The notes beneath the pieces are model-generated. The model saw nothing but the letters and a program-made list of their open reading frames with translations, ran no database searches and was not told where the DNA came from. A stretch of 64,000 nucleotides of DNA from Sulfurivirga caldicuralii (GTDB lineage: Bacteria > Pseudomonadota > Gammaproteobacteria > Thiomicrospirales > Thiomicrospiraceae): NCBI RefSeq assembly GCF_900141795.1, contig NZ_FSRE01000002.1, forward strand, positions 1 to 64,000, read 5' to 3'. This document shows positions 1 through 31,306 of this stretch, in pieces (positions within the stretch are counted from its first letter, which is position 1; each line of letters opens with the position of its first letter). The position numbers and the translations under genes were made by a program.

Positions 1-66
1 GTGAAACGCGCCAGCGCCGATGGTAGTGTGGGAGGTCCCATGCGAGAGTAGGTCATCCCCAGGCAT
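1..66 (+). rRNA. rrf: 5S ribosomal RNA, 3' part
   Basis: This is the last half of a 5S rRNA gene cut by the window edge. The segment GTGAAACGC..AGCGCCGATGGTAGTGTGGG and the later CATGCGAGAGTAGG match the highly conserved 3' domain of proteobacterial 5S rRNA, and the product should end near the AGGCAT at 61-66. It places the end of an rRNA operon immediately upstream of the pilus-like gene block. A strong terminator follows within ten bases. Confidence 0.95.
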
Positions 67-74
67 TAAATACC

Positions 75-108
75 AAACCCCGGTCGTCACAAACGACCGG
101 GGTTTTTT
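75..108 (+). terminator. rRNA operon terminator
   Basis: A 13-bp perfect stem (AAACCCCGGTCGT at 75-87 pairing with 93-105) with a 5-base loop is followed by a T run at 103-108. It lies just after the 5S gene and should end rRNA transcription before the downstream AT-rich gene block. Confidence 0.95.
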
Positions 109-132
109 ATTGGCTAGAGAAAATGTCTCATC

Positions 133-141
133 TGCTATACT
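133..141 (+). promoter_or_regulatory. Extended -10 promoter candidate for the pilus-like cluster
   Basis: TGCTATACT (TGn at 133-135, TATACT at 136-141) fits an extended -10 element. No -35 hexamer at normal spacing is convincing; TTGGCT at 110-115 is 20 bases away. Transcription from here would start near 148, only three bases before the ATG at 151, which argues for translation from a later ATG. It is the only promoter-like site between the rRNA terminator and the first gene. Confidence 0.45.
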
Positions 142-177
142 TGCAAGCTGATGTCGTATATGGCTGAGGATATGACG

Positions 178-1095
178 ATGGAGGTTGGCCGGGTTAAATT
201 GCATAAGGCTCAGTCAGGTTCAGCTCTGATTGTTCTTGTGCTGGGGATGAGCATAGGCATGCTGGTATGGTTTGGGGTCTCTGGGTTCAATTCCTTATTG
301 GAAACCAAGCGTCTTTATGAAGATATCCGCACCCAGCAGCTACTGGAAATCAAGTCTGCCTTGCTCGCCGGTTCCCTTTTTGTTCCAGAAGTGTATCAAA
401 GTAATGCTGATAAACAGCTCAAACCCTATCAAATAATTCCTGGCATTGGTTATCTGCCCTGTCCTGCCAATGAGTCAGGGGTTTGGGATGGTGCACCATG
501 CGGCAACCCCAGGCAGGGTTACATATCATCTTCTAACCCTGGCGACTCTCATACTGGCATCACCGCACTAGGCTATGTTCCCTTAGCACTTAAGAATCGT
601 AATCAGTTTTTTGCACAGGTTTTGAGAAAGGCAGAGTACAGATATATCTTGGATGAGCGTTTTGTTGCTTTTAACCAGTGTTACTACGATGAAGGAACGG
701 AATACCTTCCATATCCCGTTAATTATCTCTTGAAAATCACAAGCCCGCCTGCGCCTGTCTCTTCATGTGGGGGATCTGCCTTACCTCTTACGAATGGGAG
801 TCTGCCCGTGCCCTTTCTTTCCGTCGACAACCGAACCGGGTACGTTGCGCTGCTAATCGATCCTGGGGCTGATCTTCAGTTGGCACCTGAAAATGTCGAT
901 GGTGATGATTATTTCACCCATAAGGATAATGACGACATTATTGTTGGCATTCATTTCGGCGAGTGGTCTGAAGTTGTCAGCCAACGTTGGGTGAATGAAC
1001 GACGCTATTGGAAAAGCTTTAATAATGAGAATGGCTGGCCGTGGGCTTATGACAAGGCTAGTAATCCTGTCGGGCAGGAGTGGGCACTTAATTAA
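178..1095 (+). CDS. Pseudopilin-like membrane-anchored protein, first gene of the MSHA-like cluster
   Basis: The frame is open from ATG 151, with further in-frame ATGs at 160, 172 and 178. I prefer 178 because GAGGA at 166-170 is spaced seven bases before it and the promoter candidate leaves no leader for 151. The N-terminus is a short basic segment, then SGSALIVLVLGMSIGMLVW, a single hydrophobic helix placed like that of PilX/MshP-type minor pilins, but without the usual Glu at +5. The rest looks extracytoplasmic and has four Cys. A stretch near residues 87-97 (PGIGYLPCPA) resembles the G-x-LPCP motif that follows an ALxA helix in some pseudopilin-like proteins; that likeness is from memory. 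It sits nine bases before the ATPase gene. Function is unproven: a minor pseudopilin or a pilus tip/adhesin component is my best guess. Confidence 0.6.
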   Translation: MEVGRVKLHKAQSGSALIVLVLGMSIGMLVWFGVSGFNSLLETKRLYEDIRTQQLLEIKSALLAGSLFVPEVYQSNADKQLKPYQIIPGIGYLPCPANESGVWDGAPCGNPRQGYISSSNPGDSHTGITALGYVPLALKNRNQFFAQVLRKAEYRYILDERFVAFNQCYYDEGTEYLPYPVNYLLKITSPPAPVSSCGGSALPLTNGSLPVPFLSVDNRTGYVALLIDPGADLQLAPENVDGDDYFTHKDNDDIIVGIHFGEWSEVVSQRWVNERRYWKSFNNENGWPWAYDKASNPVGQEWALN

Positions 1096-1103
1096 GGTGT
1101 TTC

Positions 1104-2495
1104 ATGTATAAGGCCTTTTACAATCTCAATTACGATCCTTTTAGAAACACGCCCGACTCAGCTGTTTTTTTTGAGGGGGGGGATCGTAAAGCCATTGCTG
1201 ATGCACTGATTTATGTGATAGATCGGAGTGAAGGCATCACCAAGGTGGTGGGTGATGTTGGCAGCGGCAAGACCACGCTGTTGCGAACTGTTGCACAACG
1301 TCTGCTTGAGCTGGGTTATCAGGTCGCATATGTGCCCAGCCCTCTTTTGCAACCCGAGGATATGCTGCGCTTTATCCTTCGGGAGCTGCGCCTTTCCACC
1401 ACGGTTTCTTCCAAGTTTGAGATGTATGACTTACTTTATCACTATTTTACGGAGCAGCCTTCAGCAAAGGGGCTAGTTATCCTGATTGATGAGGCCCACC
1501 TGATTCCCCGGGATACTTTGGAAGAAATCAGGCTACTGACCAATCTCGAAAGCAATTCACAAAAGTTCGTTCAAATCGTGTTATTCGGTCAGCAGGAATT
1601 GGATGCGCTGCTGGATCGACACGAAAATCGTCAACTCAAGTCACGGATAGCTCATCAATTTTATTTGGGGCACCTTAACCAGGAAGAGGTGTATCAATAC
1701 CTGAACTATCGCATGCGCATAGCTGGCTACAGGGGGGAGCGGCCTTTTTTCGACCATCGTACAGCAAGAAAGATTTTTCGCCTCACGCGAGGGAACCCAA
1801 GAGAGATCAACAACCTGGCTGACAAAACGGCGCTTAACGCTTTTATGCGAAAAGGTCAAACAGCCACTGCGAAGGATGTTCCCATTCATGGGGGTATTGA
1901 TGCTATTGGATCCATGAAGTGGATGCTTGCTTCTATTTTTTTCGTTGTACTTTTGGGGGTATGGCTATATCATAGTCATTCAAATTTCTTTAGTTTGTTT
2001 GCACCACCTGATTTTGAAACTTCTCTTGCCTCCAATTCACCCTCGGATATGAATCCTCATTCTGTCGGGGCTATGAAAGAGTTAGGCCGGACATCACCAG
2101 CTGAAACGGTCATGAAGCAGGATGTGGCCCAAACGTTTGCACCGCCGGAAACTGACGGACAGGAAGAAAGGAAAAACTACTCTGTGGAAGGGGTCGCTGA
2201 CAAGGGTTACTATGTTGTGTTGGCAACGTCGCCATGTAAGGATATGAAGTTCATCTCAAGTGTGATGAAGTCCTTGAGTGCTGATTCAGCTTCATTGCTG
2301 ACCATAAGCTATGGGGAGCCACAACAGTGCAAGCTTCTGATGGGGCCATATGAGGGGTACTCGGTTGCTAAAAATGTTCTTGCAAAGCTCCCGGACAAAT
2401 TCAAACGCTTGGGTGCATATGTGATCCCGGCCGCCAAGTTGAACAAAATGGTTGATAAGCGTGATGCCAAGGTTTACCGTGGAATTTATCAATAA
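1104..2495 (+). CDS. mshM: ExeA/MshM-family AAA ATPase with transmembrane segment and C-terminal SPOR-like domain
   Basis: The N-terminal two thirds is an AAA ATPase of the GspA/ExeA/MshM group: the opening FYNLNYDPFRNTPD is characteristic, Walker A is GDVGSGKTT (residues 50-58), and Walker B ends in ILIDEAH (126-132). One hydrophobic helix follows around 272-290, then a linker, then about 100 periplasmic residues (from GYYVVLA) that resemble a SPOR/peptidoglycan-binding fold. ExeA-type proteins use ATP to help secretins assemble through peptidoglycan, which fits the secretin gene directly downstream; that gene's start lies inside the last codons here. The mshM symbol is by homology to MSHA clusters; exeA/gspA would be an equally fair name. 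Confidence 0.85.
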   Translation: MYKAFYNLNYDPFRNTPDSAVFFEGGDRKAIADALIYVIDRSEGITKVVGDVGSGKTTLLRTVAQRLLELGYQVAYVPSPLLQPEDMLRFILRELRLSTTVSSKFEMYDLLYHYFTEQPSAKGLVILIDEAHLIPRDTLEEIRLLTNLESNSQKFVQIVLFGQQELDALLDRHENRQLKSRIAHQFYLGHLNQEEVYQYLNYRMRIAGYRGERPFFDHRTARKIFRLTRGNPREINNLADKTALNAFMRKGQTATAKDVPIHGGIDAIGSMKWMLASIFFVVLLGVWLYHSHSNFFSLFAPPDFETSLASNSPSDMNPHSVGAMKELGRTSPAETVMKQDVAQTFAPPETDGQEERKNYSVEGVADKGYYVVLATSPCKDMKFISSVMKSLSADSASLLTISYGEPQQCKLLMGPYEGYSVAKNVLAKLPDKFKRLGAYVIPAAKLNKMVDKRDAKVYRGIYQ

Positions 2496-4068
2496 TTCAA
2501 CAAAAGTCATCCTCCTCCTCCTTTTCTTTTTGGCGGGTGGGTGCACAAGTGTGATGACTGGTGCCCGAGACGAGGGTCCATTGATCAAGAAACCGCCCAA
2601 AATGGATTCGCTCCCAATCGCAAAAAGGTCGGAGGTTATAAGAACCCATAAGCCTTTGCTGATTCCCAGTGTGTCTGCTCCAGGCTCAAAACTCATCGTT
2701 GTGCCACCCGGACCATTGGATAAGCCGATCACTATCAATGCGCATGGAATGTCTGTTTCCGATGTGATCAATCTGCTTGCTGAGCAGAGTGAGTTGCAGT
2801 TGGATGTTCGGCAGTTGCCTCCCAAGAAAATTACGCTTTTTCTAAAGGAGGTGCCTCTGCGGATGGCGATCAAGAAAATAACTGAGCAGGCCGGCCTAAC
2901 CTATACCTATCATAATGGGATTTTAACTATCGATGCCGATCGCCCTGTTTGGAAGCCCTATGTAATAGACCGTATTAATATCAAAAAGTCAGTTAAAGAG
3001 GCAATTTCCCTCAATATGTCAGTTGGTAGCGCTGTTTCAGGGGAAGAGGGTGGCGGTTCGGCCATTCAGGGAGGCCACAATACAAGCGAGGTGCAGCTGG
3101 AGTCTGAACAGGATCCTTGGAAAGAGATTGAGGAAAACCTCAAAGCCATCCTTGGATTAAATAATGCTGTTGAGCAGCAGCAAGGGACAGAAAGCGTTTC
3201 TATATTACCGATGCAGCCGGTGCAGAAGAATGCCTATTCCATTAACCGGCATGCCGGCATTATCATGGTGTACGCACCATCTCAACTTCAGAAAAAGGTG
3301 GCCGCATATCTAGATCGTGTAAAGCAGCGGTCCAAGCGTCAAGTACTTATAGAGGCGATGGTGGTAGAGGTGCAATTATCTGATACCCATCAGGCTGGTA
3401 TTGACTGGTCCTCCTTTCAGGTGACTAATGGTACTTCTGCTCAACTTTCGAATACATATCCAATTCGTATTGTGACAGCAAATAATCAACTTTCTCAGTT
3501 GTTCAATATGAATCTCGGTATCAAGTTCTTGCAAAAGTTTGGAAAAACACGGGTCATATCGCAACCCAAGATTGTAGCGCTTAATAACCAGTCTGCCATT
3601 CTTAAGGTGGTCGATAATCAGGTTTATTTCACAACTTCCGTTAGTGCAGACTCAAATCAGTCTACGACTACAATTACTTTTGAAACAGAGGTCCATACAG
3701 TTCCGGTCGGGTTTATGATGACAGTTACACCATTTGTAGCAGACAATGATCGTGTAGAGCTGTATGTACGCCCCAACATTTCGCGTATTCTTGGTTACGT
3801 AGCTGACCCTCATCCAGAGTTGGCTCGAGCAGGGGTTAAAAGTGAAATTCCAATTATTCAGGAGAGAGAAATTAGCACGACGCTACAACTCAAGAGTGGC
3901 GAAACAGTTGTGATAGGCGGCTTGATGCAGTCAGAGAATGCAGATACCTCCAATGGGCTGCCAGGCTTGGCTGACGCACCTGGCTTTGGTTCATTGTTTA
4001 AATCCATTGACAACTCTAGTTCGCGGTCTGAACTTGTGATTTTCCTGCGTCCGGTATTGGTCGAGTAG
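2464..4068 (+). CDS. mshL: Outer-membrane secretin lipoprotein (MshL/GspD/PilQ family)
   Basis: This forms the outer-membrane channel of the apparatus. Starting at ATG 2464 (an upstream TTG at 2452 is also in frame) gives a lipoprotein signal peptide ending in the lipobox LAGG-C with Cys27. N-domain-like sequence follows (SVSDVINLLAEQSELQLDV), then a low-complexity Gly/Ser-rich insert, then the secretin domain: VLIEAMVVEVQLSDTHQAGIDW and the C-terminal VVIGGLMQ ... GLPGLADAPGFGSLF ... LVIFLRP, all classic secretin signatures. It overlaps the end of the ATPase gene by 32 bases and is followed four bases later by the TPR gene, so the three are probably co-translated. The lipidated N-terminus suggests it may not need a separate pilotin. 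Confidence 0.92.
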   Translation: MPRFTVEFINNSTKVILLLLFFLAGGCTSVMTGARDEGPLIKKPPKMDSLPIAKRSEVIRTHKPLLIPSVSAPGSKLIVVPPGPLDKPITINAHGMSVSDVINLLAEQSELQLDVRQLPPKKITLFLKEVPLRMAIKKITEQAGLTYTYHNGILTIDADRPVWKPYVIDRINIKKSVKEAISLNMSVGSAVSGEEGGGSAIQGGHNTSEVQLESEQDPWKEIEENLKAILGLNNAVEQQQGTESVSILPMQPVQKNAYSINRHAGIIMVYAPSQLQKKVAAYLDRVKQRSKRQVLIEAMVVEVQLSDTHQAGIDWSSFQVTNGTSAQLSNTYPIRIVTANNQLSQLFNMNLGIKFLQKFGKTRVISQPKIVALNNQSAILKVVDNQVYFTTSVSADSNQSTTTITFETEVHTVPVGFMMTVTPFVADNDRVELYVRPNISRILGYVADPHPELARAGVKSEIPIIQEREISTTLQLKSGETVVIGGLMQSENADTSNGLPGLADAPGFGSLFKSIDNSSSRSELVIFLRPVLVE

Positions 4069-4072
4069 TTCA

Positions 4073-5917
4073 ATGAGTGTTTTATTAGAGGCATTAAAAA
4101 AGGCTGCTGAGCAACGAGCTGCTGCTGATGCCAAGGTGGAAGCCTCAGATGATGGTGGGGTTTACACTGCGGTCGAACAGCCTCATACGGCTTCGTCGAA
4201 TGGCTGTCCGATAAACAAGGATGACGAGCTTCCTCTACATTCTGCAATGCAGCCTCAGCAGGCTGATGATTCTGATGTACCAGAAGCTAATGAGACTGGG
4301 GCGTCACCTTCAGGTATTCCGTTAAAAATAAAATTTCCCATTTCCGAAGCGCCAGATGACAAGGCTGCTGGTGAACGACAGGCTGTTTTCTCTTCGGATG
4401 ACATAGAGGACAATAAACATAAATCCAGCTTTGAAAATGCCCAAACGCTACAGCATTACAAACCTTTCACCGAATTACGCCAGGCAGATTTAGAGCCGTC
4501 AGATACCGCTTATGGGTTTGCTGAGGCCGATAAGGTAGCAACAAAACCACTTGGTTCGCACCCTGGCAGGGATGAGTCTGTTAGGGGTTCTGCATTCAGT
4601 GATGCATTGAGAGAAAGTGAGGGTCTTAAGTTTGTTGAAGAATCGGAGCTTTTATCTTCCAGCGACAGTGAAGAATGGGGGGTGCCGGATGCTGATAATA
4701 CTGCTACTTCACCGGAAGATATAGACTTCGTACCCTCACAACTGAGTGAAGATAAAGTGGGGTCTACTACCCCTGCAATGCCAGATAAGGCCGCCGCCTC
4801 CACTTCACACGAAGAAATTGGCACGGATGGAGGCTTTCAAGTTCAGGACCCAAGTGTATTGCTTCGGTCCCGAAAATCAGGGCGCCGCATCAGCCCATCG
4901 GTCTTATTGCTTGCCCTGCTCATTGTTATGGCTTCGGTTGCGGTCATTTGGGGTTATTACCAAAACACACAGCCGGCTCTACCTAATCGCTACGCCCATA
5001 TTGCAGACAGACACGAGCACGAACTGACAGTTTTATCTGATGCAGGCAAACCCAAGGAGGTACCTGAGCGTTCGCCATCACCCCAGGAAGTTCATTCTCC
5101 AGTGATGTCAGAACGGGGGCAGGAACCTCTATCAATGCCTAACGTTGAAAAAATAGGCGATGATACTCAAAGTGAAAGCCAAGAAAATCCGACCGAGAAT
5201 AAAAAGCTTTCTGAAGCGGCTACACACAAAGCCCCCCCCATATTAGCTAGAACGGATGCTGTTAAAAAGAAGGAAGCAGAGGAAAAAGCACCCTCGGGTG
5301 TTGCTCAACTGAATCGACGTGAAGATGGGAAACCTCTAACCTCTTATCCTCGTCTTAAAAAGGCGGCGACGAATCAAACACAAATCGTTTCACTCGAGCA
5401 ATGTTTTGAGCAGCTTATTAGAGAAGCCACTCAAGGGGATGCATGTAATCACATTGATAATGCTTCTATACGTTTGGCTTTTGAGGCGTATCGTTTGTTT
5501 AGCGCGGGCCAAGTGGAACGGGCAAGGCGGCTGGTTCATCAGGCTTATAGTACGGCCCCCTATAATATTTATGTTGCACAAATCTATGCACTGATTGGGG
5601 GGGAAGCAATCCCGCTTGAGCAGTTAGCGTCCCTGCATGAAATATTCCCGGGAGCCGTCACTATTGCATTGCAGCTTGCTAATCGTTATGTTCTGTCAGG
5701 AAATCTGAATAAGGCTCTCGATGTCCTAATGTTGGCACTCGAGGAGCACCCCCGCAATGGCTATCTGCTGTATAACGCAGCACTTGTGGCCTATGAGATG
5801 GATAAGAAAAACTTGGCTTCTGATTTGCTAAGCAGGATTCCGGCTAATCATCTTCAAATAGATTCACAGCTTGGTCAGGCGGTCCACGATCTGGAGGCAG
5901 TGATCGGCAATGGTTAA
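4073..5917 (+). CDS. mshN: TPR-containing single-pass membrane protein, MshN-like
   Basis: The 614-residue product begins MSVLLEALKKAAEQRAAADA, a start shared by inner-membrane MshN/GspB-like subunits. It continues with about 240 acidic, Ser-rich, probably disordered residues, one transmembrane helix around 275-298 (SVLLLALLIVMASVAVIWGYY), a second charged linker, and a helical C-terminus (about 440-614) with tetratricopeptide-like periodicity (QVERARRLVHQAY, NLNKALDVLMLALEEHPRNGYLLYNAA). The topology, cytoplasmic tail plus periplasmic TPR, matches MshN. It starts four bases after the secretin stop and overlaps the mshE start by eight bases. The family call rests on topology, the N-terminal tag and neighbours; the long acidic cytoplasmic segment is unusual. 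Confidence 0.7.
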   Translation: MSVLLEALKKAAEQRAAADAKVEASDDGGVYTAVEQPHTASSNGCPINKDDELPLHSAMQPQQADDSDVPEANETGASPSGIPLKIKFPISEAPDDKAAGERQAVFSSDDIEDNKHKSSFENAQTLQHYKPFTELRQADLEPSDTAYGFAEADKVATKPLGSHPGRDESVRGSAFSDALRESEGLKFVEESELLSSSDSEEWGVPDADNTATSPEDIDFVPSQLSEDKVGSTTPAMPDKAAASTSHEEIGTDGGFQVQDPSVLLRSRKSGRRISPSVLLLALLIVMASVAVIWGYYQNTQPALPNRYAHIADRHEHELTVLSDAGKPKEVPERSPSPQEVHSPVMSERGQEPLSMPNVEKIGDDTQSESQENPTENKKLSEAATHKAPPILARTDAVKKKEAEEKAPSGVAQLNRREDGKPLTSYPRLKKAATNQTQIVSLEQCFEQLIREATQGDACNHIDNASIRLAFEAYRLFSAGQVERARRLVHQAYSTAPYNIYVAQIYALIGGEAIPLEQLASLHEIFPGAVTIALQLANRYVLSGNLNKALDVLMLALEEHPRNGYLLYNAALVAYEMDKKNLASDLLSRIPANHLQIDSQLGQAVHDLEAVIGNG

Positions 5918-7643
5918 TTCATCGAAGCATTCAGGACACTCAATGCAGGGGCGTGGGGAACGCAAAAGGCTGGGTGAGCACCTTGTCGAGGCGGGCATTA
6001 TTCGGCCAGATCAGCTGCAGGTTGCACTCGTTGAGCAGAAGCGGACCGGAAAAAAACTGGCAGAAATGCTCCGAGAACTGGGGTTCATTTCTGAAGAGCA
6101 GGCTAAAAATGTTCTGGGCGAAGTGACCGGTCACAGTGTGGTTGATCCAAATGCCATGCTGGTCGACCCCGAGTTGATCCGTCTTATTCCTGAATCACTG
6201 GCACGGCAATACCTTGTTTTTCCTATCTCTTTTGACAAAAAACGACTTCATGTGGCAGTTGCTGATCCCGATGATATTATTTTGCTTGACAAGATCAAGC
6301 GCGCCATTGGGAATGATGCAATTGAAGTCGTTCCATTTATTGCAAATCCTGATGCTATTCGGCAGGCAATTGAAAAATATTATGGGTTTGATTTTGTCAT
6401 AGATCATATTCTCGATGAGTTAACACACGATACCAGTGCGGTTGGTGGCGTTGAAATAGATGGTACTTATGAGCATCCAATTGTACGGCTTGTCGATTCC
6501 ATTTTGTCCGATGCCGTAAAGAAGGGGGCTTCAGATATTCATATTGAGCCGGAGGAAAAGTTTGCACGACTCCGCTATCGTATAGATGGGGTTCTACAGG
6601 AAATCAAGGTATTTCACAAATCACTTTTTTCCCCAGTTACGGTACGCATCAAGATACTTTCTGAGCTGGATATTTCTGAGTCCCGCCATCCGCAAGATGG
6701 GCGGATGCAGTTGAATATCTTGGGACGAGAAATTTTCTTTCGTGTTTCCACTTTGCCCACGATTCACGGCGAGAATATTGTTCTGCGTATTCTTGATCGC
6801 AACAAGGGAATTGTTCCGCTTGATAAGTTGGGACTGGACAAGCATGCAACCTCAGAACTTCAGCTGGTCCTGGCTCGCCCGGTAGGTATTATATTGGTGA
6901 CAGGACCGACCGGATCAGGTAAAACAACGACGTTATACTCCATCCTGAATGAGCGGAATTCACCGGAAATCAATATCATGACGCTTGAGGATCCGGTCGA
7001 ATACCCCTCCCAACTGATTCGTCAGACCCAAATCAATGAAGATATCGGGTTTACATTTGGTTCCGGCGTAAGAGCACTGCTTCGCCAGGATCCGGACATC
7101 ATTCTTATTGGTGAAGTGCGGGACCAGGATACCGCTGAAATGGCATTCAGAGCAGCCATGACAGGACATCAGGTCTTGGCCACTCTGCATACTAACTCAG
7201 CCATCGGTGCTATTACCCGCTTGATAGATTTGGGTGTAACGAAGACCGTTTTGGCCGGGAATATTGCGGGTATTCTCGCACAGAGACTGGTACGAAGGCT
7301 TTGTAACCTGTGCAAGGTGCCCTATGAACCGGATAGCATGGAACGCAAGCTGCTGGGGATTCCGGACTCGCAGGAAAGTATTGTTCTATATGCTCCAAAG
7401 GGATGCCCCGCTTGTAATGGTACAGGTTACTCCGGTCGTATTGCAGTGGTAGAGATTCTCCGCATGAACAAGGAGCTCGATGACTTGGTGTTGAAGGAGG
7501 CCTCATTAAGCGACTTTATGGAGGTGGCGAAGGCAAATGGTTTTCGTCCGCTGGTTGAATCAGCCATTAATAGAGTCTTGTCCGGCGAAACGTCACTTCA
7601 TGAGATTGCACGTGTTATTGATCTGAGCGAGCAGATCGGCTGA
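5910..7643 (+). CDS. mshE: Type II/IV assembly ATPase, MshE-type, with N-terminal c-di-GMP-binding domain
   Basis: This is the cytoplasmic motor that drives pilin or pseudopilin assembly. The N-terminus has the MshEN cyclic-di-GMP motif: R20-LG-xxL-xxxG-II-xxxxL-xxxL-xxQ43 matches the published consensus at each fixed position I can check; the second repeat (K49 to V72) is degenerate. The ATPase core has Walker A GPTGSGKTT (332-340), an Asp box, Walker B RQDPDIILIGEVRD (392-405) and a His box. A tetra-cysteine zinc site, C465-x2-C468 and C499-x2-C502, follows. The start overlaps the end of mshN. All catalytic elements look intact, so it should be active, probably gated by c-di-GMP as known for V. 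cholerae MshE. Confidence 0.93.
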   Translation: MVNSSKHSGHSMQGRGERKRLGEHLVEAGIIRPDQLQVALVEQKRTGKKLAEMLRELGFISEEQAKNVLGEVTGHSVVDPNAMLVDPELIRLIPESLARQYLVFPISFDKKRLHVAVADPDDIILLDKIKRAIGNDAIEVVPFIANPDAIRQAIEKYYGFDFVIDHILDELTHDTSAVGGVEIDGTYEHPIVRLVDSILSDAVKKGASDIHIEPEEKFARLRYRIDGVLQEIKVFHKSLFSPVTVRIKILSELDISESRHPQDGRMQLNILGREIFFRVSTLPTIHGENIVLRILDRNKGIVPLDKLGLDKHATSELQLVLARPVGIILVTGPTGSGKTTTLYSILNERNSPEINIMTLEDPVEYPSQLIRQTQINEDIGFTFGSGVRALLRQDPDIILIGEVRDQDTAEMAFRAAMTGHQVLATLHTNSAIGAITRLIDLGVTKTVLAGNIAGILAQRLVRRLCNLCKVPYEPDSMERKLLGIPDSQESIVLYAPKGCPACNGTGYSGRIAVVEILRMNKELDDLVLKEASLSDFMEVAKANGFRPLVESAINRVLSGETSLHEIARVIDLSEQIG

Positions 7644-7644
7644 T

Positions 7645-8835
7645 ATGTTGTTTCGATATGCTGCATACAAGGATGGCAAGCGTATTACAGGGGAGATGGA
7701 TGCGAGCTCACCTCGCGAGGTCATTAATCATTTGCGTTCTTCCGGCTTGATACCCATCAAGGTAAAGCCTAAACATAACCCTTTATTTAGTTCAGGCAAG
7801 CCGACGCGGCAACAAATCATTTCCTTCTCAATCCAGCTGAAGCAGCTTATCTCTGCGGGTGTTCCCATTATCAGTGCATTAGAGAACATTCGCGACTCTT
7901 CTATGGGGACCATGCGGACAATTATTGCCGATATTGTGGAACAGCTGAAGGCTGGGCAGTCATTTTCACAAGCACTGGAATCTAAGAAAGATATTTTTGG
8001 TGAAGTATATGTCTCGTTGATAAAGGTTGGTGAAAAAACGGGGCGTATCGAATCCTCTCTGCAAGAACTGATTGATCTGCTGGAGTGGGAAGAAGATGTG
8101 GCTGCGAGGACCAAGAAAATAGTTATTTATCCTTCTATTGTTCTTGTGGTGGTTACTGCAGTCGTTATCGTGCTCATGATTTTTGTTGTACCCAAGCTAA
8201 CCAACTTTATTCAGGAAATGGGCGGGGAAATACCGTGGACGACGCGAGCATTGATCGCCACTTCTGAGTTTATCTCCAATAATATGATACTCATAATTGC
8301 AGCCCCCTTGTTATTGCTGGTCCTGTTGCGATATTTATATAAAAGAAATGATAAAGTCAGGTATAAGCTGGATTGTATTATTTTGAAAATCCCACTGATT
8401 GGGGAGGTGCTAAAGCTGCTTAAACTGGCCAGATTCTCTAAAGCAGTGGCCCTCTCGTTTTCTGCGGGGATCGGGTTTGTAGACTCCCTTGACCTTGCCA
8501 GGCGTGTTGTTGCTTCACGCTGTATAGAGCTTCAAGTCGTTGATGCAATGAAAAAAATAGAAGAAGGTGCCAGCATCTACGAAGCAATATCCAATCAGGA
8601 TTTTTATAATCCTATATCACTTAATATTATAAAGGCTGGAGAGGAATCCGGTCAGCTGGATGCGTCATTCAAGGTAATTAGCTCAAACTATGACTTTGAT
8701 GCAAAGCGAAAAATTGATAAGCTGGAACCTGCCATTGAGCCCCTCCTGATAATAGTGCTGGCTGCAATCGTGTTGTGGATTATGATGGCTGTTATGGGAC
8801 CGGTATATGACACTATAAGCAAAATACAGATTTAA
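7645..8835 (+). CDS. mshG: Inner-membrane platform protein (GspF/PilC/MshG family)
   Basis: At 396 residues this has the normal length for GspF. An N-terminal segment (FRYAAYKDGKRITGEMDASSPREVINHL) matches the family start, then come two T2SSF domains, each with a helix-rich cytoplasmic part followed by hydrophobic helices: VVVTAVVIVLMIFVVPKL, MILIIAAPLLLLVLLRYL and the C-terminal PLLIIVLAAIVLWIMMAVMGPVY. The motif IKVGEKTGRIESSL and its second-repeat partner IKAGEESGQLDASF are diagnostic. It begins one base after the mshE stop. The partner ATPase is expected to dock on its cytoplasmic domains. Confidence 0.93.
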   Translation: MLFRYAAYKDGKRITGEMDASSPREVINHLRSSGLIPIKVKPKHNPLFSSGKPTRQQIISFSIQLKQLISAGVPIISALENIRDSSMGTMRTIIADIVEQLKAGQSFSQALESKKDIFGEVYVSLIKVGEKTGRIESSLQELIDLLEWEEDVAARTKKIVIYPSIVLVVVTAVVIVLMIFVVPKLTNFIQEMGGEIPWTTRALIATSEFISNNMILIIAAPLLLLVLLRYLYKRNDKVRYKLDCIILKIPLIGEVLKLLKLARFSKAVALSFSAGIGFVDSLDLARRVVASRCIELQVVDAMKKIEEGASIYEAISNQDFYNPISLNIIKAGEESGQLDASFKVISSNYDFDAKRKIDKLEPAIEPLLIIVLAAIVLWIMMAVMGPVYDTISKIQI

Positions 8836-8843
8836 TAACGTAT

Positions 8844-10403
8844 ATGAATGATATTAACACAATTATTCTTACTGACTCGGATCTGTTTTTTGTTCCGGCT
8901 GCCTCAACAGACTCTGTTGTCTCCTTTTCATATGATGAGATGGAGCATATACAGGCCTTTTTGATTGAGTTGGATACTGTATATGCACGCCAGGAATTTA
9001 ATATCCTTTTTTATTCCAAGTCCGATGAATTGATTGTGTCTGATGCGCCTGCACTGATGCCATGGGAGGTGTCGTCGTTTGTTGCAACCCACTGTGGAGA
9101 AAGATACGGATCACAGGAAAGAGTCATCGCGCATGCAGACTACATGCGTTGCAGCGGCAAGCCTATTCTAAGGGACTGGGTAGTTACACTTAATGATCAA
9201 ACCTATTCCGTCTATGAATCCTTGCTGGCCAGAGATATTCTGGTTTTGTCCGTTTACTCTTTTCCGTCAAGTCTCGCCTATGCACTATCCCACCCTGGAA
9301 AAGGATTAAAGGCCAGCCTCAATGGTGTTGCAAAGCTTGCGGGCTCCCAATTAACAAAAAAATTAACGGTTGTATATGACTGCGAATTCATCCATTTTTT
9401 TATAATCGATCAATGTGGGACTGTTTTTTTTCGCCATACCCCAATTAAAAGCAGTCAGAAGGGCGTTGTGGAATCCCTGATCGTACGGGAGGTTGACCTG
9501 ACCTTGAGGTTTGTGTTGGCAAAAGGGGTGATATCAGAGTCTGATCCTATTAATTTTAACCTGATTCTGCCTGATGAGCTACTTGGTCGCGCTCATCTGT
9601 GTAGTGAGAAGTCATTTGTGGGTCTTTCTTTGCTCTCAAATCTTGACTCTTTTAATTGTAGTTCTTTTAAGGCCCTATTAAAAGGTGTTGAGGTAAGCGG
9701 TTGCAATGGACTGCCAATCCCATTATTCAAAGCGGTAGTTAATAAGTATCCAGGTTTCCCTCTTTTAAAAACGCGGGCAGGCAAGAATAAGCGCGCTCTG
9801 GTGCAACTTGGTGCCATAATATGGGCTGGCCTTTTTGTAATTGGGACCCTTTTTTCATACTATTTGGGAAATACCGTTTCAAGGCTTATTAGTCTTCAGG
9901 AGGGAGTATCTACGTTAGAGTATCAAAAGGCCAAGCTCGTATATTTAAGGAATAATATTCAGTCTAAACTGAATCTACATTATGATCCTTCTGATATGTA
10001 TCAGCTTGTATTGTTCAATGATGCCTTCACAAAAGCACAGGCTAATAATCGATTGACAGCAGTCTATTTGCCTTTGCTGGCTGTTCTTGAGCGGTTTGCA
10101 CCACAAGTAAAAATACGTGAGTTTACTTTTGAAGATGAACAATCCAACCTCCTTGGAGAGCCGGTATACAAGATTAAGGTTTTGCTGGCGTTGCCTGTTG
10201 AGGAGTATTCCCTAGCCCAGGTCGATATCTTGATGGAAACCATAGCCAGCCATCTTCAGCGTTCAAAAGGCGTTAAATCGGTTAAACAGATTAAGCAGCC
10301 TTTTGATGATGATACTAAGAAGCTGTTAAAGATTAATATTGAGGATTATGAAAAGGATTACTATTTTTATATAGTTAGTTATAAATTTGCGCCTCCTGAA
10401 TAA
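8844..10403 (+). CDS. GspL/PilM-PilN-like assembly protein (putative MshI equivalent)
   Basis: No close family is recognisable from sequence alone. The 519-residue product has an N-terminal soluble part of about 320 residues, one transmembrane helix around 322-345 (AIIWAGLFVIGTLFSYYLG), a coiled-coil-like stretch, and a C-terminal periplasmic domain of about 130 residues. That is the layout of GspL and of a PilM-PilN fusion, and the gene sits where MSHA and T4P clusters carry mshI or pilM/pilN, directly before the PilO-like gene (the ATG of that gene overlaps this stop, TAATG). The region is particularly AT-rich. Function as a cytoplasm-to-periplasm connector for the ATPase is inferred from layout and context only. 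Confidence 0.55.
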   Translation: MNDINTIILTDSDLFFVPAASTDSVVSFSYDEMEHIQAFLIELDTVYARQEFNILFYSKSDELIVSDAPALMPWEVSSFVATHCGERYGSQERVIAHADYMRCSGKPILRDWVVTLNDQTYSVYESLLARDILVLSVYSFPSSLAYALSHPGKGLKASLNGVAKLAGSQLTKKLTVVYDCEFIHFFIIDQCGTVFFRHTPIKSSQKGVVESLIVREVDLTLRFVLAKGVISESDPINFNLILPDELLGRAHLCSEKSFVGLSLLSNLDSFNCSSFKALLKGVEVSGCNGLPIPLFKAVVNKYPGFPLLKTRAGKNKRALVQLGAIIWAGLFVIGTLFSYYLGNTVSRLISLQEGVSTLEYQKAKLVYLRNNIQSKLNLHYDPSDMYQLVLFNDAFTKAQANNRLTAVYLPLLAVLERFAPQVKIREFTFEDEQSNLLGEPVYKIKVLLALPVEEYSLAQVDILMETIASHLQRSKGVKSVKQIKQPFDDDTKKLLKINIEDYEKDYYFYIVSYKFAPPE

Positions 10404-11041
10404 TGAATTACGTACTTATTAAAAAATATCTTCTCCTTCCAGTTTTGTCCCTGGTTGTTTTGTCTGTTATAGACTATCAGGCATATTTACACCTCAGCCA
10501 TCGTTTAGAAAGAACTCAGCATCGGCTCGACTCCCTGATAGCAGAAGTTAACCGGCTTGACAAAGAGGTTTCCTTTTTGCGCCAGAAGCTGGTTTACTAC
10601 CTTCGTTATGGTGAGCAATATAAGAAGATTTCAGTCTGGCTTGTCAAACCTCTGGATCGTTTGTTGTTTTCTGATCAATTTTATCGTCTGTCTCAGATCT
10701 ACAACATTTCCAATTTTGCCATTACTTTCATGCCTCGTCGCCCTATATCTGGTCTCCGAGCCGGCAATACAGCTATCAGAGAGGGCCTGTTGGTTGCTGA
10801 CCCTGTTAGGTTGCGTTGGGATGGGCCGAGTGATGTAGATCATTTCCGTATTGTTAATTTTTATAATCTACACACATCCCCATATTTTAGAGTTAGTAAC
10901 TGCAGCATGGTATTCTCCGGCGATATTGCCTCATTTGATTTTGCCAAGGCTGTCAAGGAAAGGCCTGGTCTTATTTCTTTCGACTGTGAGCTTGTATTTA
11001 TTGTTGCGATGCCAAGAGAGCTTGATTATGCTTCAGATTAA
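10403..11041 (+). CDS. PilO/MshJ-like inner-membrane protein
   Basis: A 212-residue protein with a single N-terminal transmembrane helix (about 8-28, LLLPVLSLVVLSVIDYQAYL), a predicted coiled coil (HRLERTQHRLDSLIAEVNRLDKEV and on) and a periplasmic alpha/beta domain. This is the PilO/GspM/MshJ plan. It shares its start with the stop of the GspL-like gene (TAATG) and overlaps the next gene by 14 bases, so the three membrane-complex subunits are likely translated as a coupled set. Sequence similarity to named families is weak, so the assignment depends on topology and order. Confidence 0.6.
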   Translation: MNYVLIKKYLLLPVLSLVVLSVIDYQAYLHLSHRLERTQHRLDSLIAEVNRLDKEVSFLRQKLVYYLRYGEQYKKISVWLVKPLDRLLFSDQFYRLSQIYNISNFAITFMPRRPISGLRAGNTAIREGLLVADPVRLRWDGPSDVDHFRIVNFYNLHTSPYFRVSNCSMVFSGDIASFDFAKAVKERPGLISFDCELVFIVAMPRELDYASD

Positions 11042-11501
11042 TAGAGTGATATTACATTCTCTTGTTTTTATTTTGGTTTTTTTAAAACCAGCCTTTTCAG
11101 ACGATGTTCCGGTATCGCTTTTTTCTGATCCTGTCTTCTCTGATCCACTCAAGTTTTTTAACGATAATTTGAATCAGCGTTTCCCCCCTTTTTTTCTCAC
11201 TCCTGATCAACGTGATATGATTGATAGACTGCGTAAAAATCGCTTGGGCATTAAAATTCGGTCAGAATCGCTCGGGCATGGTAAACCTGTTATGCGCAAG
11301 TATAAAATAGTTGGATTTGTGGAGGTTGGCGCCGGAAAGGTTTTTGTAGCGTTGGAGGGCGTTGGGCTTGTTTCGCTAACTCGGATTTTCGGAAGGAATA
11401 AGTTGATAGTCAATAAAGTTGGCTACCGAACTCTTTCTGTTTCAGTTAATGGAGTTCGCCAAGAGTTGACAGTCGGCGAGAAGGTGGCTCTGAAGATGTG
11501 A
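11028..11501 (+). CDS. Secreted PilP/GspC/MshK-like protein
   Basis: The frame is open from further upstream, but ATG 11028 is the likely start: AGAGAG lies nine bases before it and the product then begins with a clean signal peptide (MLQINRVILHSLVFILVFLK-PAFS). The mature part of about 130 residues ends in a small beta-rich domain (KVFVALEGVGLVSLTR..VNGVRQELTVGEKVALKM) similar in plan to the HR domain of PilP/GspC and to MshK. Those proteins link the inner-membrane PilN/PilO pair to the secretin, consistent with its place at the end of the cluster. The assignment is by context and domain plan. It is the last gene before the strand switch to trxB. Confidence 0.6.
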   Translation: MLQINRVILHSLVFILVFLKPAFSDDVPVSLFSDPVFSDPLKFFNDNLNQRFPPFFLTPDQRDMIDRLRKNRLGIKIRSESLGHGKPVMRKYKIVGFVEVGAGKVFVALEGVGLVSLTRIFGRNKLIVNKVGYRTLSVSVNGVRQELTVGEKVALKM

Positions 11502-11518
11502 GACTGGCTTATAAGTTA

Positions 11519-11547
11519 GAGGGGAGTTTCCTTGTTCTTCTCCCCTC
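11519..11547. terminator. Hairpin between convergent genes
   Basis: GAGGGGAG (11519-11526) pairs with CTCCCCTC (11540-11547) around a 13-base loop. It sits between the end of the pilus-like cluster and the end of trxB, which converge. There is no strong T run, so termination activity is uncertain. Confidence 0.5.
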
Positions 11548-11563
11548 CATGGACGTTAAGAAA

Positions 11564-12559
<996 letters not shown>

Positions 12560-12636
12560 CTATCCTCATATATGGATGCAACCTATCAAAGCATGAATCA
12601 ATAATAAGATTTTACGCGCTTTTGGCATCGGAGACA

Positions 12637-12674
12637 GGGGGGTCCCCGACTTTTTCGCAAACCATAAAAATGCG
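12637..12674 (+). repeat. Dispersed GGGGTCCCCGACTTTTT element, copy 1
   Basis: The core GGGGGGTCCCCGACTTTTT spans 12637-12655 between trxB and ftsK. It is followed by CGCA (12656-12659) and TGCG (12671-12674), which can form a short stem around an A-rich loop. Five other copies occur in the window. Confidence 0.85.
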
Positions 12675-12755
12675 CTGTGCTGCCAAGCCGTTCAGAGCGC
12701 TTTGAAGAGCCTTTTTACACGTTCAGGACTTGTTTTGAGCCATTCGAGGAGCATC

Positions 12756-15095
12756 ATGCAGGATTCCGACTCCATGTCGCTATGGCGCTGGCTATTGCGG
12801 GAAGGCGCGTGGCTGGGTGCCCTGTTGCTCGCAACTTTTCTGTTTCTGATTCTGTTCAGCTATACCCCCAGCGACCCCGGCATCAACCAGAGTGGAAGCG
12901 ACCACCCCATTCATAATTACGGGGGGCGCTCCGGCGCCTGGGTGGCCTCAGTCATGTTCTATCTGATCGGTGCCTGGGCGTTGCTTATCCCTTTTTTCCT
13001 GCTTGGGCTGGCGTGGCGCGCCTTTCGTCAGGCACGTGATCTGGACGAATCGGCGGACACATTGACGCGTGGCTTGCTGGGCGGCACCATGGTGCTGGTG
13101 GCGGGCGCTGCGCTAACAGCCCTTTACTTGGATCCCAAGGCATTCATCGTGCCATTGCCCCATTCCGGTGGCGGTGTGCTGGGGTATGCATTGGCACAGA
13201 CGCTGGTCAGTGGCATCGACCGGCTCGCCACAACTCTGTTGTTGCTGCTAGTGGGGGCGCTGGGGGTTGCTTTGCTGCTCGGGCGCAGTTGGCTGAACAT
13301 CTTTGAGTCGACCGGTGCGCGTGCCTGGTGGCTGTGGGAATGGCTGAGAAACCGGCCAGCACAGGACGGTCAGCGTTGGAGCATGGCAGCGCTGAAGGCG
13401 CAGTTCCTGCAACGGTTACGTGGGGATAAGAGCGCGCCTGTTGTGGAGGCTAGGTCGCCTGCTCCAGCCAAAACAAAACGTTCCGCTGCCAATCCGCCGG
13501 CTTCACAGGCGAAAAAAGTGGAGGCGGTGACTGCGCCCGCTTCCACTGCCAGTGTTAACACCCAGGCGCAGGTCAATACCGTTTATACCGGGGGAGAGGG
13601 CGGCTTGCCGCCTGTCGATCTGCTTGATCTGCCGCAACCAGCCCAGGACAACTATGGTGAATCGGAGCTGGCGGAGATGTCTGCCCTGCTGGAGAAGAAT
13701 CTGCTCGACTTCGGCGTCAAGGCGCAAGTGGAGTCGGTGCAGGCCGGCCCCGTGGTGACCCGCTTCGAGATTCTGCCGGCCCCTGGCGTAAAGGTCTCAC
13801 AGATCAGCAACTTGGCCAAGGATCTGGCGCGGGCACTTTCCGTGCGCTCGGTGCGTGTCGTGGAGGTGATCCCCGGCAAGTCTACCGTGGGCATTGAAAT
13901 TCCCAATCCGACTCGTGAAGTGATCGCCCTGCGGGAAATTATCGCGTCCGACCTGTTTGCGCACGCGCGTTCGCCGTTGACACTGGCGCTGGGCAAGGAT
14001 ATTGCCGGCGAACCGGTGGTGGCCGATCTGGCCAAGATGCCACATCTGCTGGTGGCCGGGACCACCGGTTCCGGCAAGTCGGTGGGTATCAACTCCATGA
14101 TCGTCTCCATGCTCTACAAGTCCACACCCGAGCAGGTGCGGCTGATTATGGTGGACCCCAAGATGCTGGAACTGTCGGTGTATGAAGACATTCCCCATCT
14201 GCTTACGCCGGTGGTGACCGACATGAACGAAGCGGCGCAGGCGTTGCGTTGGTGTGTCTATGAGATGGATCGTCGCTATCAGCTGATGGCTAAATTGGGC
14301 GTGCGCAATATCGCCGGTTTCAATGAAAAGGTTCAGGCAGCGATCGACCGTGGCGAGCCGTTGGTCGATCCTCTGTGGAAGCCTGATCCCAACTTTGGCC
14401 ATGAACTGAGCGAAGAGGTCCCGACACTCCAGCCGCTGCCCTATATCGTGGTGGTCATCGATGAGTTCGCCGACATGATGATGGTGGTGGGCAAAAAGGT
14501 GGAGGAGCTGATCGCGCGCCTGGCGCAAAAGGCCCGTGCAGCGGGCATCCACCTGATTCTTGCCACTCAGCGTCCGTCGGTGAACGTGATTACCGGCCTG
14601 ATCAAGGCGAATATTCCCACACGCATCTCCTTTCAGGTGTCGTCCAAGGTGGATTCACGCACCATTCTGGATCAGATGGGCGCCGAGCAGCTTCTGGGGC
14701 AGGGGGACATGCTCTATCTGCCGCCGGGCAGCGGCGTGCCGCGGCGCGTACATGGGGCCTTCGTGTCGGATGACGAGGTGCATCGCGTGGTGGATTACGT
14801 GAAGCAGCAGGGAGCGCCGCAGTATCTGGACATGATCCTGCAACAGGGTAATGAAGGCGGCAGTGCTTCGGCACTGGAGGGCATGGGTGGCGATGCCGAA
14901 AAGGACAGCCTGTATGATGCGGCGGTGGCGTTTGTGATCGAAAAGCAGCGGGTATCCGTCTCCCTGATTCAGCGTCAGTTCAGCATCGGCTACAATCGTG
15001 CCGCACGCATTGTAGAAGCAATGGAGCAAGCAGGCGTGGTGTCCCCCATGGAAAGCAACGGTGGCCGCAAGGTACTGGTGCCGAAGGAGTCGTAA
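12756..15095 (+). CDS. ftsK: DNA translocase FtsK (short form)
   Basis: Septal membrane ATPase that pumps DNA and activates XerCD at dif during division. An in-frame TTG exists at 12702, but GAGGAG (12746-12751) points to ATG 12756, giving 779 residues. The N-terminal domain has about four membrane helices; a short Ala/Pro/Lys-rich linker replaces the long linker of E. coli FtsK (1,329 residues), as in SpoIIIE and many other proteobacterial versions. The motor has Walker [14 protein letters not shown] and Walker [15 protein letters not shown], and the C-terminal winged-helix gamma domain ends in [16 protein letters not shown]. Its stop overlaps the lolA start (TAATG). Confidence 0.97.
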
Positions 15096-29854: not shown

Positions 29855-31306
29855 ATGCATACGCTAAGCCTGCGCGAACTGAGCGACAAGCTCCATCGCC
29901 GTGAGATTTCCAGCGTCGAACTGACGCAATATTTTCTGGGCCGCATCGAAAAACTGGATCCCGAACTCAACAGTTTCATTACCGTCACGCCTGATGTGGC
30001 GCTCGAAATGGCGAAAATGGCCGATGCGGCCATCGCCGAAGGCAGTGCCGGGTCGCTCACCGGTATCCCCATTGCCCACAAGGACCTGTTTACTACCGAT
30101 GGTATCCGCACCAGCTGCGCCAGCCGCATGCTGGACAACTTCATTGCGCCGTATGACGCCCATGTGGTGGAAAAGCTCAAGCAGGCCGGCATGCCGATTC
30201 TGGGCAAGACCAACATGGACGAATTTGCCATGGGCTCCTCCAGCGAGACCAGCTACTATGGCCCGGTGCGCAATCCGTGGGACAGGGATGCAGTGCCGGG
30301 CGGTTCATCCGGCGGCTCGGCAGCAGCGGTTGCAGCCGGCCTGACACCTGCAGCTACCGGCTCGGATACCGGCGGCTCCATTCGCCAGCCCGCCAGCTTC
30401 TGCGGCATTACCGGCATCAAGCCCACCTATGGTCTCGTGTCCCGCTACGGCATGATCGCCTATGCTTCCAGCTTTGATCAGGGCGGTCCCATGGCGCGCA
30501 GTGCCGAGGATGCCGCCTGGCTGCTCAACGCCATGGCCGGTTTCGACAAGCGCGACTCCACCTCGCTGGAACGCGAGCTGCCGGACTACACTGTCCATCT
30601 GAACGACAGCCTTGAGGGGCTGCGCATCGGCCTGCCGAAGGAGTACTTTAGCGAGGGGCTGGATGACGAGGTGGCGCAGGTGATTGAGGCAGCCATCACA
30701 GAGCTGGAAAAGCTGGGCGCTACCGTGGTGGAGGTGAGCCTGCCCAACAAGGACCTGGCTGTGCCGGCCTATTACGTGCTGGCACCGGCGGAGGCGTCGT
30801 CCAATCTGGCGCGCTATGACGGTGTGCGCTACGGCCACCGCTGCGAAGATCCGAAGGATCTGAAGGACATGTATACCCGTTCCCGTGCGGAAGGCTTTGG
30901 CGACGAGGTGAAGCGTCGCATCATGATCGGTGCCTATGCCCTGTCGGCGGGCTATTACGACGCCTATTACCTCAAGGCGCAGCAGCTGCGCCGCATGGTG
31001 CGCGACGACTTCGTGCGCGCCTTCGAGCAGTGCGACGTGATCGCCGGGCCGGTGGCGCCGACGGTGGCGTGGAACCTGGGCGAGAAGTCCGACGATCCGG
31101 TCAGCATGTATCTGGCCGACCTGTACACCATTCCGGTGAACCTGGCCGGCCTGCCCGGCATGAGCGTGCCGGCAGGCTTTGCCAAGGGGCGCCCGGTGGG
31201 GCTGCATCTGGTGGGGCCGTATTTCAGCGAAGCGAAGCTGCTGAATATCGGTCACCAATTCCAGCAGCACACCGACTGGCACACACGTACACCGGAACTG
31301 GGTTAA
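29855..31306 (+). CDS. gatA: Asp/Glu-tRNA(Asn/Gln) amidotransferase subunit A
   Basis: Amidase subunit that releases ammonia from glutamine. The 483-residue product has the amidase-signature catalytic triad context: the Lys of IPIAHKDLF, the cis-Ser in [27 protein letters not shown] and its downstream nucleophile in [17 protein letters not shown] and [19 protein letters not shown] are also typical of GatA. It lies between gatC and gatB, which follows after 12 bases. Confidence 0.98.

What the first reader, a model, noticed from the sequence alone, without database searches (positions are those of the whole stretch)
109..11501. AT-rich MSHA/T2SS-like island abutting an rRNA operon
The nine genes from 178 to 11501 are packed on one strand with overlaps or gaps of a few bases. 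Hand-counted rows illustrate the base difference: 22/60 G+C at 8281-8340 against 45/60 at 30481-30540. The block starts just after the rRNA terminator, ends at a hairpin before trxB, and is followed by conserved GC-rich core genes. This suggests horizontal acquisition beside the rRNA operon.
Basis: partly seen in the sequence, partly recalled or inferred. Interest (0 to 1): 0.75.

Follow-up and report, generated by a model that had tools for sequence, protein, structure and literature searches.

The report
Ancestral MSHA pilus locus beside rRNA
The AT-rich block is the assembly machinery of an MSHA-type pilus that this bacterial family has long carried next to a ribosomal RNA operon, so it is not a newly acquired island, although why it stayed so AT-rich is not explained.

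Summary
Nine tightly packed plus-strand genes lie between a 5S rRNA terminator and trxB. At 41-48% G+C they form the lowest 10-kb stretch in the 1.33 Mb of this 59% G+C genome that was read. The block encodes the assembly half of an MSHA-type type IV pilus, in the order ORF1-mshM-L-N-E-G-I-J-K. It holds the only platform protein found in the genome.

Acquisition beside the rRNA operon is not supported. In 11 genomes of three other genera of the family, the same mshM-to-mshK block follows a 5S gene, mostly within about 250 bp. In the MSHA tree this genome is a deep branch of its own inside the family. New here are ORF1 at the front (linked to the pilin operon in relatives) and the junction with trxB. 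Three same-genus draft genomes lack the machinery, but also lack trxB and part of ftsK, so missing contigs are likely.

The low G+C is unexplained. The second most AT-rich 10 kb is the pilin and adhesin locus, probably of the same system. In-situ replacement from an unsampled relative is not excluded.

The parts
1..60 (+). 3' end of the 5S rRNA gene (approximate end), at the start of the contig
   Evidence: Exact 95-base overlap with the rRNA contig C2, where Rfam finds 16S, 23S and 5S
75..105 (+). rRNA terminator hairpin followed by T run
   Evidence: 13 pairs, then TTTATT; folds at about -25 kcal/mol in a 52-base segment
178..1095 (+). ORF1, pilin-operon-associated protein with a hydrophobic N-terminus and an LPCP motif; start may be 151
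   Evidence: Homologues sit beside the pil1-pil2 pilin genes in relatives, E down to 7e-19; no Pfam hit
1104..2495 (+). mshM, AAA ATPase of the ExeA/MshM kind
   Evidence: Pfam AAA_22 2e-22; orthologues at the same place in relatives
2464..4068 (+). mshL, outer-membrane secretin (start codon uncertain: TTG 2452 or ATG 2464)
   Evidence: Secretin 6e-41; TIGR02519 pilus_MshL 248.9 bits, cut-off 250.2
4073..5917 (+). mshN, TPR protein
   Evidence: TPR at the C-terminus; weak orthologues at the same place in relatives
5910..7643 (+). mshE, extension ATPase with an MshEN domain
   Evidence: T2SSE 1e-127 and MshEN 6e-21; 51-58% identical to family orthologues
7645..8835 (+). mshG, inner-membrane platform protein
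   Evidence: T2SSF 2.5e-42; the only T2SSF protein found in the genome
8844..10403 (+). mshI-like protein (PilM/PilN kind, by synteny)
   Evidence: Same place and length in relatives, 15-18% identity; no Pfam hit
10403..11041 (+). mshJ-like protein (PilO kind, by synteny)
   Evidence: 20-28% identity to relatives at the same place
11028..11501 (+). mshK-like protein (PilP kind, by synteny)
   Evidence: Weak similarity to relatives at the same place
11519..11548 (.). hairpin between the convergent mshK and trxB; right edge of the block
   Evidence: 8-pair G+C-rich stem; the 58-base segment folds at -16.4 kcal/mol

Best explanation
The block is the assembly operon of an MSHA-type type IV pilus, inherited with the family and long placed behind an rRNA operon. 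MshE extends the filament through the MshG platform, MshI/J/K align it in the periplasm, and MshL with MshM/N carries it through the outer membrane. Candidate pilins, retraction ATPases and the prepilin peptidase are encoded elsewhere in the genome. Identity and position are shown; the working of the machine is inferred from the family. In this lineage ORF1 came to lie in front of mshM, and the far end came to abut trxB. The low G+C is most likely a persistent local bias in surface-filament genes within a lineage that became G+C-rich, not a mark of recent import; that step is inferred.
For: Domain hits for secretin, extension ATPase, platform and AAA protein. The same order mshM-L-N-E-G-I-J-K in relatives, behind 5S in 11 genomes of three other genera. 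Deep branch inside the family in the MSHA tree, supports 0.98-1.0. MSHA genes are lower in GC3 than trxB across 24 family genomes (p 0.001). A prepilin peptidase, prepilins and PilT/PilU-type ATPases are elsewhere in the genome. The pilin-adhesin locus on C7 is also AT-rich.
Against: By genome G+C the block is lower than the family trend predicts (0.462 against 0.552, p 0.009). In two high-G+C relatives of g7 the block follows genome composition. This genome has the longest branch in the MSHA tree. The block was not found in three same-genus drafts. No mshA was pinned down.
Confidence: 0.78

Rival explanations
1. In-situ replacement: the ancestral block was exchanged for a homologous one from an AT-richer, unsampled relative, perhaps by recombination anchored in the rRNA operon, leaving the position unchanged.
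For: G+C and GC3 typical of lower-G+C family members; longest branch in the MSHA tree.
Against: No sampled lineage groups with this genome as a donor. ORF1 and the separate pilin locus are AT-rich as well, so several exchanges, or one followed by a split, would be needed.
Confidence: 0.15
2. Recent island insertion: a foreign block newly inserted between the rRNA operon and trxB.
For: AT-rich block with sharp edges; a junction with trxB seen only here; absent from three same-genus drafts.
Against: Same position behind 5S in three other genera. The same drafts lack trxB and the 5' half of ftsK and any platform protein, while two keep a prepilin peptidase and all three keep PilT-type ATPases, so contigs are probably missing. 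The nine genes form an ordered pilus operon, with no integrase seen among the ORFs and no tRNA in the block.
Confidence: 0.05

Closest known systems
MSHA pilus assembly operon of Vibrio cholerae (mshI-mshF; PMC4624765)
   Same: Same set of machine parts: extension ATPase with MshEN domain, platform, secretin, MshM AAA ATPase, MshN TPR protein, and MshI/J-like proteins.
   Different: Order differs: mshI/J/K come last here, and L and M are swapped relative to my recollection of the Vibrio order. Pilin genes are not beside the machine genes; ORF1 stands at the front.
MSHA blocks of the other genera of the same family (handles g3, g4, g6)
   Same: Same gene order and strand, directly after a 5S gene.
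   Different: No ORF1 in front of mshM in the loci read; rmuC-like or other genes, not trxB, after mshK; G+C closer to that of the host genome.

Membership tests
MSH system (type IV filament model of PMC6668835) | mshE, extension ATPase | tested here: met
   T2SSE and MshEN domains; in the MSHA clade with family orthologues
MSH system (type IV filament model of PMC6668835) | mshG, platform protein | tested here: met
   T2SSF, next to mshE
MSH system (type IV filament model of PMC6668835) | mshL, secretin | tested here: met
   Best NCBIfam model is pilus_MshL, 248.9 bits, just under its cut-off of 250.2; Pfam Secretin 6e-41
MSH system (type IV filament model of PMC6668835) | mshM, AAA ATPase | tested here: met
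   AAA_22; orthologues in front of mshL in relatives
MSH system (type IV filament model of PMC6668835) | mshA, major pilin (may be a loner) | tested here: inconclusive
   Three N-methyl prepilins on contig C7; none was identified as MshA
MshEN c-di-GMP receptor (PMC5013675) | Two intact 24-residue binding motifs | tested here: inconclusive
   Motif I perfect at residues 20-43; motif II degenerate, with R, G, L and Q changed; NCBIfam c-di-GMP_motif 63.3 bits, cut-off 38
Horizontally acquired genomic island | Composition unlike the host genome | tested here: met
   Lowest 10-kb G+C of the part of the genome read
Horizontally acquired genomic island | Absent from the same site in near relatives | tested here: not met
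   Present behind 5S in three other genera; same-genus drafts are uninformative
Horizontally acquired genomic island | Phylogeny that points to a donor outside the lineage | tested here: not met
   Deep branch of its own inside the family

The most novel reading that the evidence does not exclude
This MSHA machine is the cell's only type IV filament and builds a filament that includes a pilin fused to calcium-binding RTX repeats like those of the giant adhesin encoded beside it, and the two separate loci are kept AT-rich by a shared pressure such as silencing or repeated exchange.
Probability: 0.2. Interest if true: 0.55.

Novelty: new member of a known kind. Interest (0 to 1): 0.3.

Why it matters
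It shows that an AT-rich block with sharp edges beside an rRNA operon can be an old, inherited locus, so composition alone misleads. It also suggests that draft genomes assembled from metagenomes may lose such blocks together with neighbouring core genes. That the two AT-richest 10-kb regions read are probably the two halves of one surface filament is a pattern worth testing elsewhere.

Tried and rejected
Naming the organism: two scans of the named genome collection (MshI and FtsK queries) returned no recognisable member of the family, so relatives are given by handle; a guess of Thiomicrospiraceae/Sulfurivirga is from memory and untested. IQ-TREE did not give a tree; FastTree was used. A G+C gradient away from the rRNA operon was considered and dropped, as it runs one way in g3 and the other way here. 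A sigma-70 promoter scan of the region gave fewer hits than shuffled sequence. The held library gave one incidental paper for MSHA with Thiomicrospira, and none of the listed papers for pilin, RTX and MSHA had a title about RTX-fused pilins. Structure prediction was not used.

Full report
What is there. The window begins at the start of a contig, in the last bases of a 5S rRNA gene, followed by a strong terminator hairpin at 75-105. The rRNA operon itself sits on a separate 5.5-kb contig that overlaps this one exactly by 95 bases. Nine plus-strand genes then run from 178 to 11501 with gaps of 1-8 bp or short overlaps. They end at a hairpin before trxB, which faces them, and trxB is followed by ftsK.

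Composition. The block is 41-48% G+C in 1-kb windows. Over the 1.33 Mb read, 79% of the 1.67-Mb genome, the mean of 1-kb windows is 59.0%, and the block gives the lowest 10-kb value, 0.455. The next lowest separate region, 0.507, is the start of contig C7, and no 10-kb window outside these two regions falls under 0.53. GC3 is 0.38-0.49 in the block against 0.71 in trxB and ftsK.

Identity. The genes are ORF1, mshM, mshL, mshN, mshE, mshG, and three genes recognised as mshI-, mshJ- and mshK-like mainly by synteny and weak similarity. MshG is the only platform protein found in the genome. A prepilin peptidase, PilT/PilU-type ATPases and three prepilins lie elsewhere. In the model of PMC6668835, mshE, G, L and M are mandatory and are found here; mshA, also mandatory but allowed to be a loner, is not pinned down. 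MshE has a perfect first c-di-GMP half-motif and a degenerate second one, so control by c-di-GMP is possible but not established; many relatives also depart from the strict pattern.

Relatives. The genomes held are unnamed; g1 is the window's genus and f1 its family. An mshE of this type, 51-58% identical, is found in most f1 genomes outside g1. In the relatives read, the order around it is mshM-L-N-E-G-I-J-K. In G018, G011, G034, G022, G005, G014 and G028 (g3), G006 (g4) and G019, G023, G032 (g6) the block follows a 5S gene; in G028 mshM is about 1.7 kb away, in the others roughly 80-250 bp. In g7 it mostly follows a gene for an IlvC-like protein, and in g2 it lies elsewhere. The trxB-ftsK pair is conserved in most relatives, but the mshK-trxB junction was seen only here. 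ORF1 is new in front of mshM: its homologues in relatives sit next to the pil1-pil2 pilin pair.

Descent. In a tree of mshM+L+E+G this genome is a deep branch within f1, with SH-like supports of 0.98-1.0 around it, and has the longest branch; TrxB also places it deep, with weak support for pairing with g2. No sampled genus looks like a donor. The shared rRNA position is most simply ancestral to g1, g3, g4 and g6, and lost in g7.

The same-genus drafts. G001-G003 lack mshE, but also trxB and any DNA match to window bases 11500-13700, which covers trxB and the 5' part of ftsK; two of their contigs end inside ftsK. They have no T2SSF protein at all, yet two have a prepilin peptidase and all three have PilT-type ATPases. 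I read this as contigs missing from the bins; true loss is not excluded.

Why AT-rich. Across 24 f1 genomes MSHA genes have lower GC3 than trxB (p 0.001). By trxB GC3 this genome is within the family trend (p 0.17), but by genome G+C it is under it (0.462 against 0.552 expected, p 0.009, 11 genomes sampled by one or two 20-kb stretches each). Part of the low G+C is therefore a family habit and part is special to this genome. A persistent local bias and replacement from an unsampled relative both remain possible; I favour the first because the separate pilin locus shows the same bias. These tests were chosen after seeing the data, treat related genomes as independent, and use modest samples.

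Verdict. The claim of acquisition at this site is not supported.

Noticed in passing
L067:7498-12044 (contig C7 of the same genome): Two prepilin genes in tandem. The second encodes 1157 aa: a pilin-like N-terminus followed by RTX calcium-binding repeats (Pfam HemolysinCabind) that are 48% identical to repeats in the adhesin gene upstream. In most relatives the pilin is 250-570 aa without them; G007 has a 677-aa form with similar repeats.
   Followed up: partly
L067:59-7541: A giant cadherin/Ig-type adhesin cut by the contig start (at least 2044 aa), then a Ser/Thr protein kinase with TPR repeats, directly upstream of the two pilin genes; also AT-rich.
   Followed up: partly
L314:1-1095 and L315:1489-2235 (G002, G001): RTX-repeat protein ends resembling the tail of the 1157-aa pilin, each cut off by a contig end, in two same-genus drafts.
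   Followed up: partly
C4:1-4736 and the left end of C3, same genome: Contigs C3 and C4 share repetitive ends; the C4 end encodes a large repeat protein with RTX-like motifs, probably where the assembly broke.
   Followed up: no
C7:478001-480000, same genome (in L211): Another AT-rich spot (43% G+C), in a gene for a multi-membrane-span protein next to an epimerase gene, likely surface polysaccharide.
   Followed up: no
window 48001-49000: Strong AT skew (-0.42) inside a minus-strand gene of at least 820 aa that looks like an RNase E-type protein.
   Followed up: no
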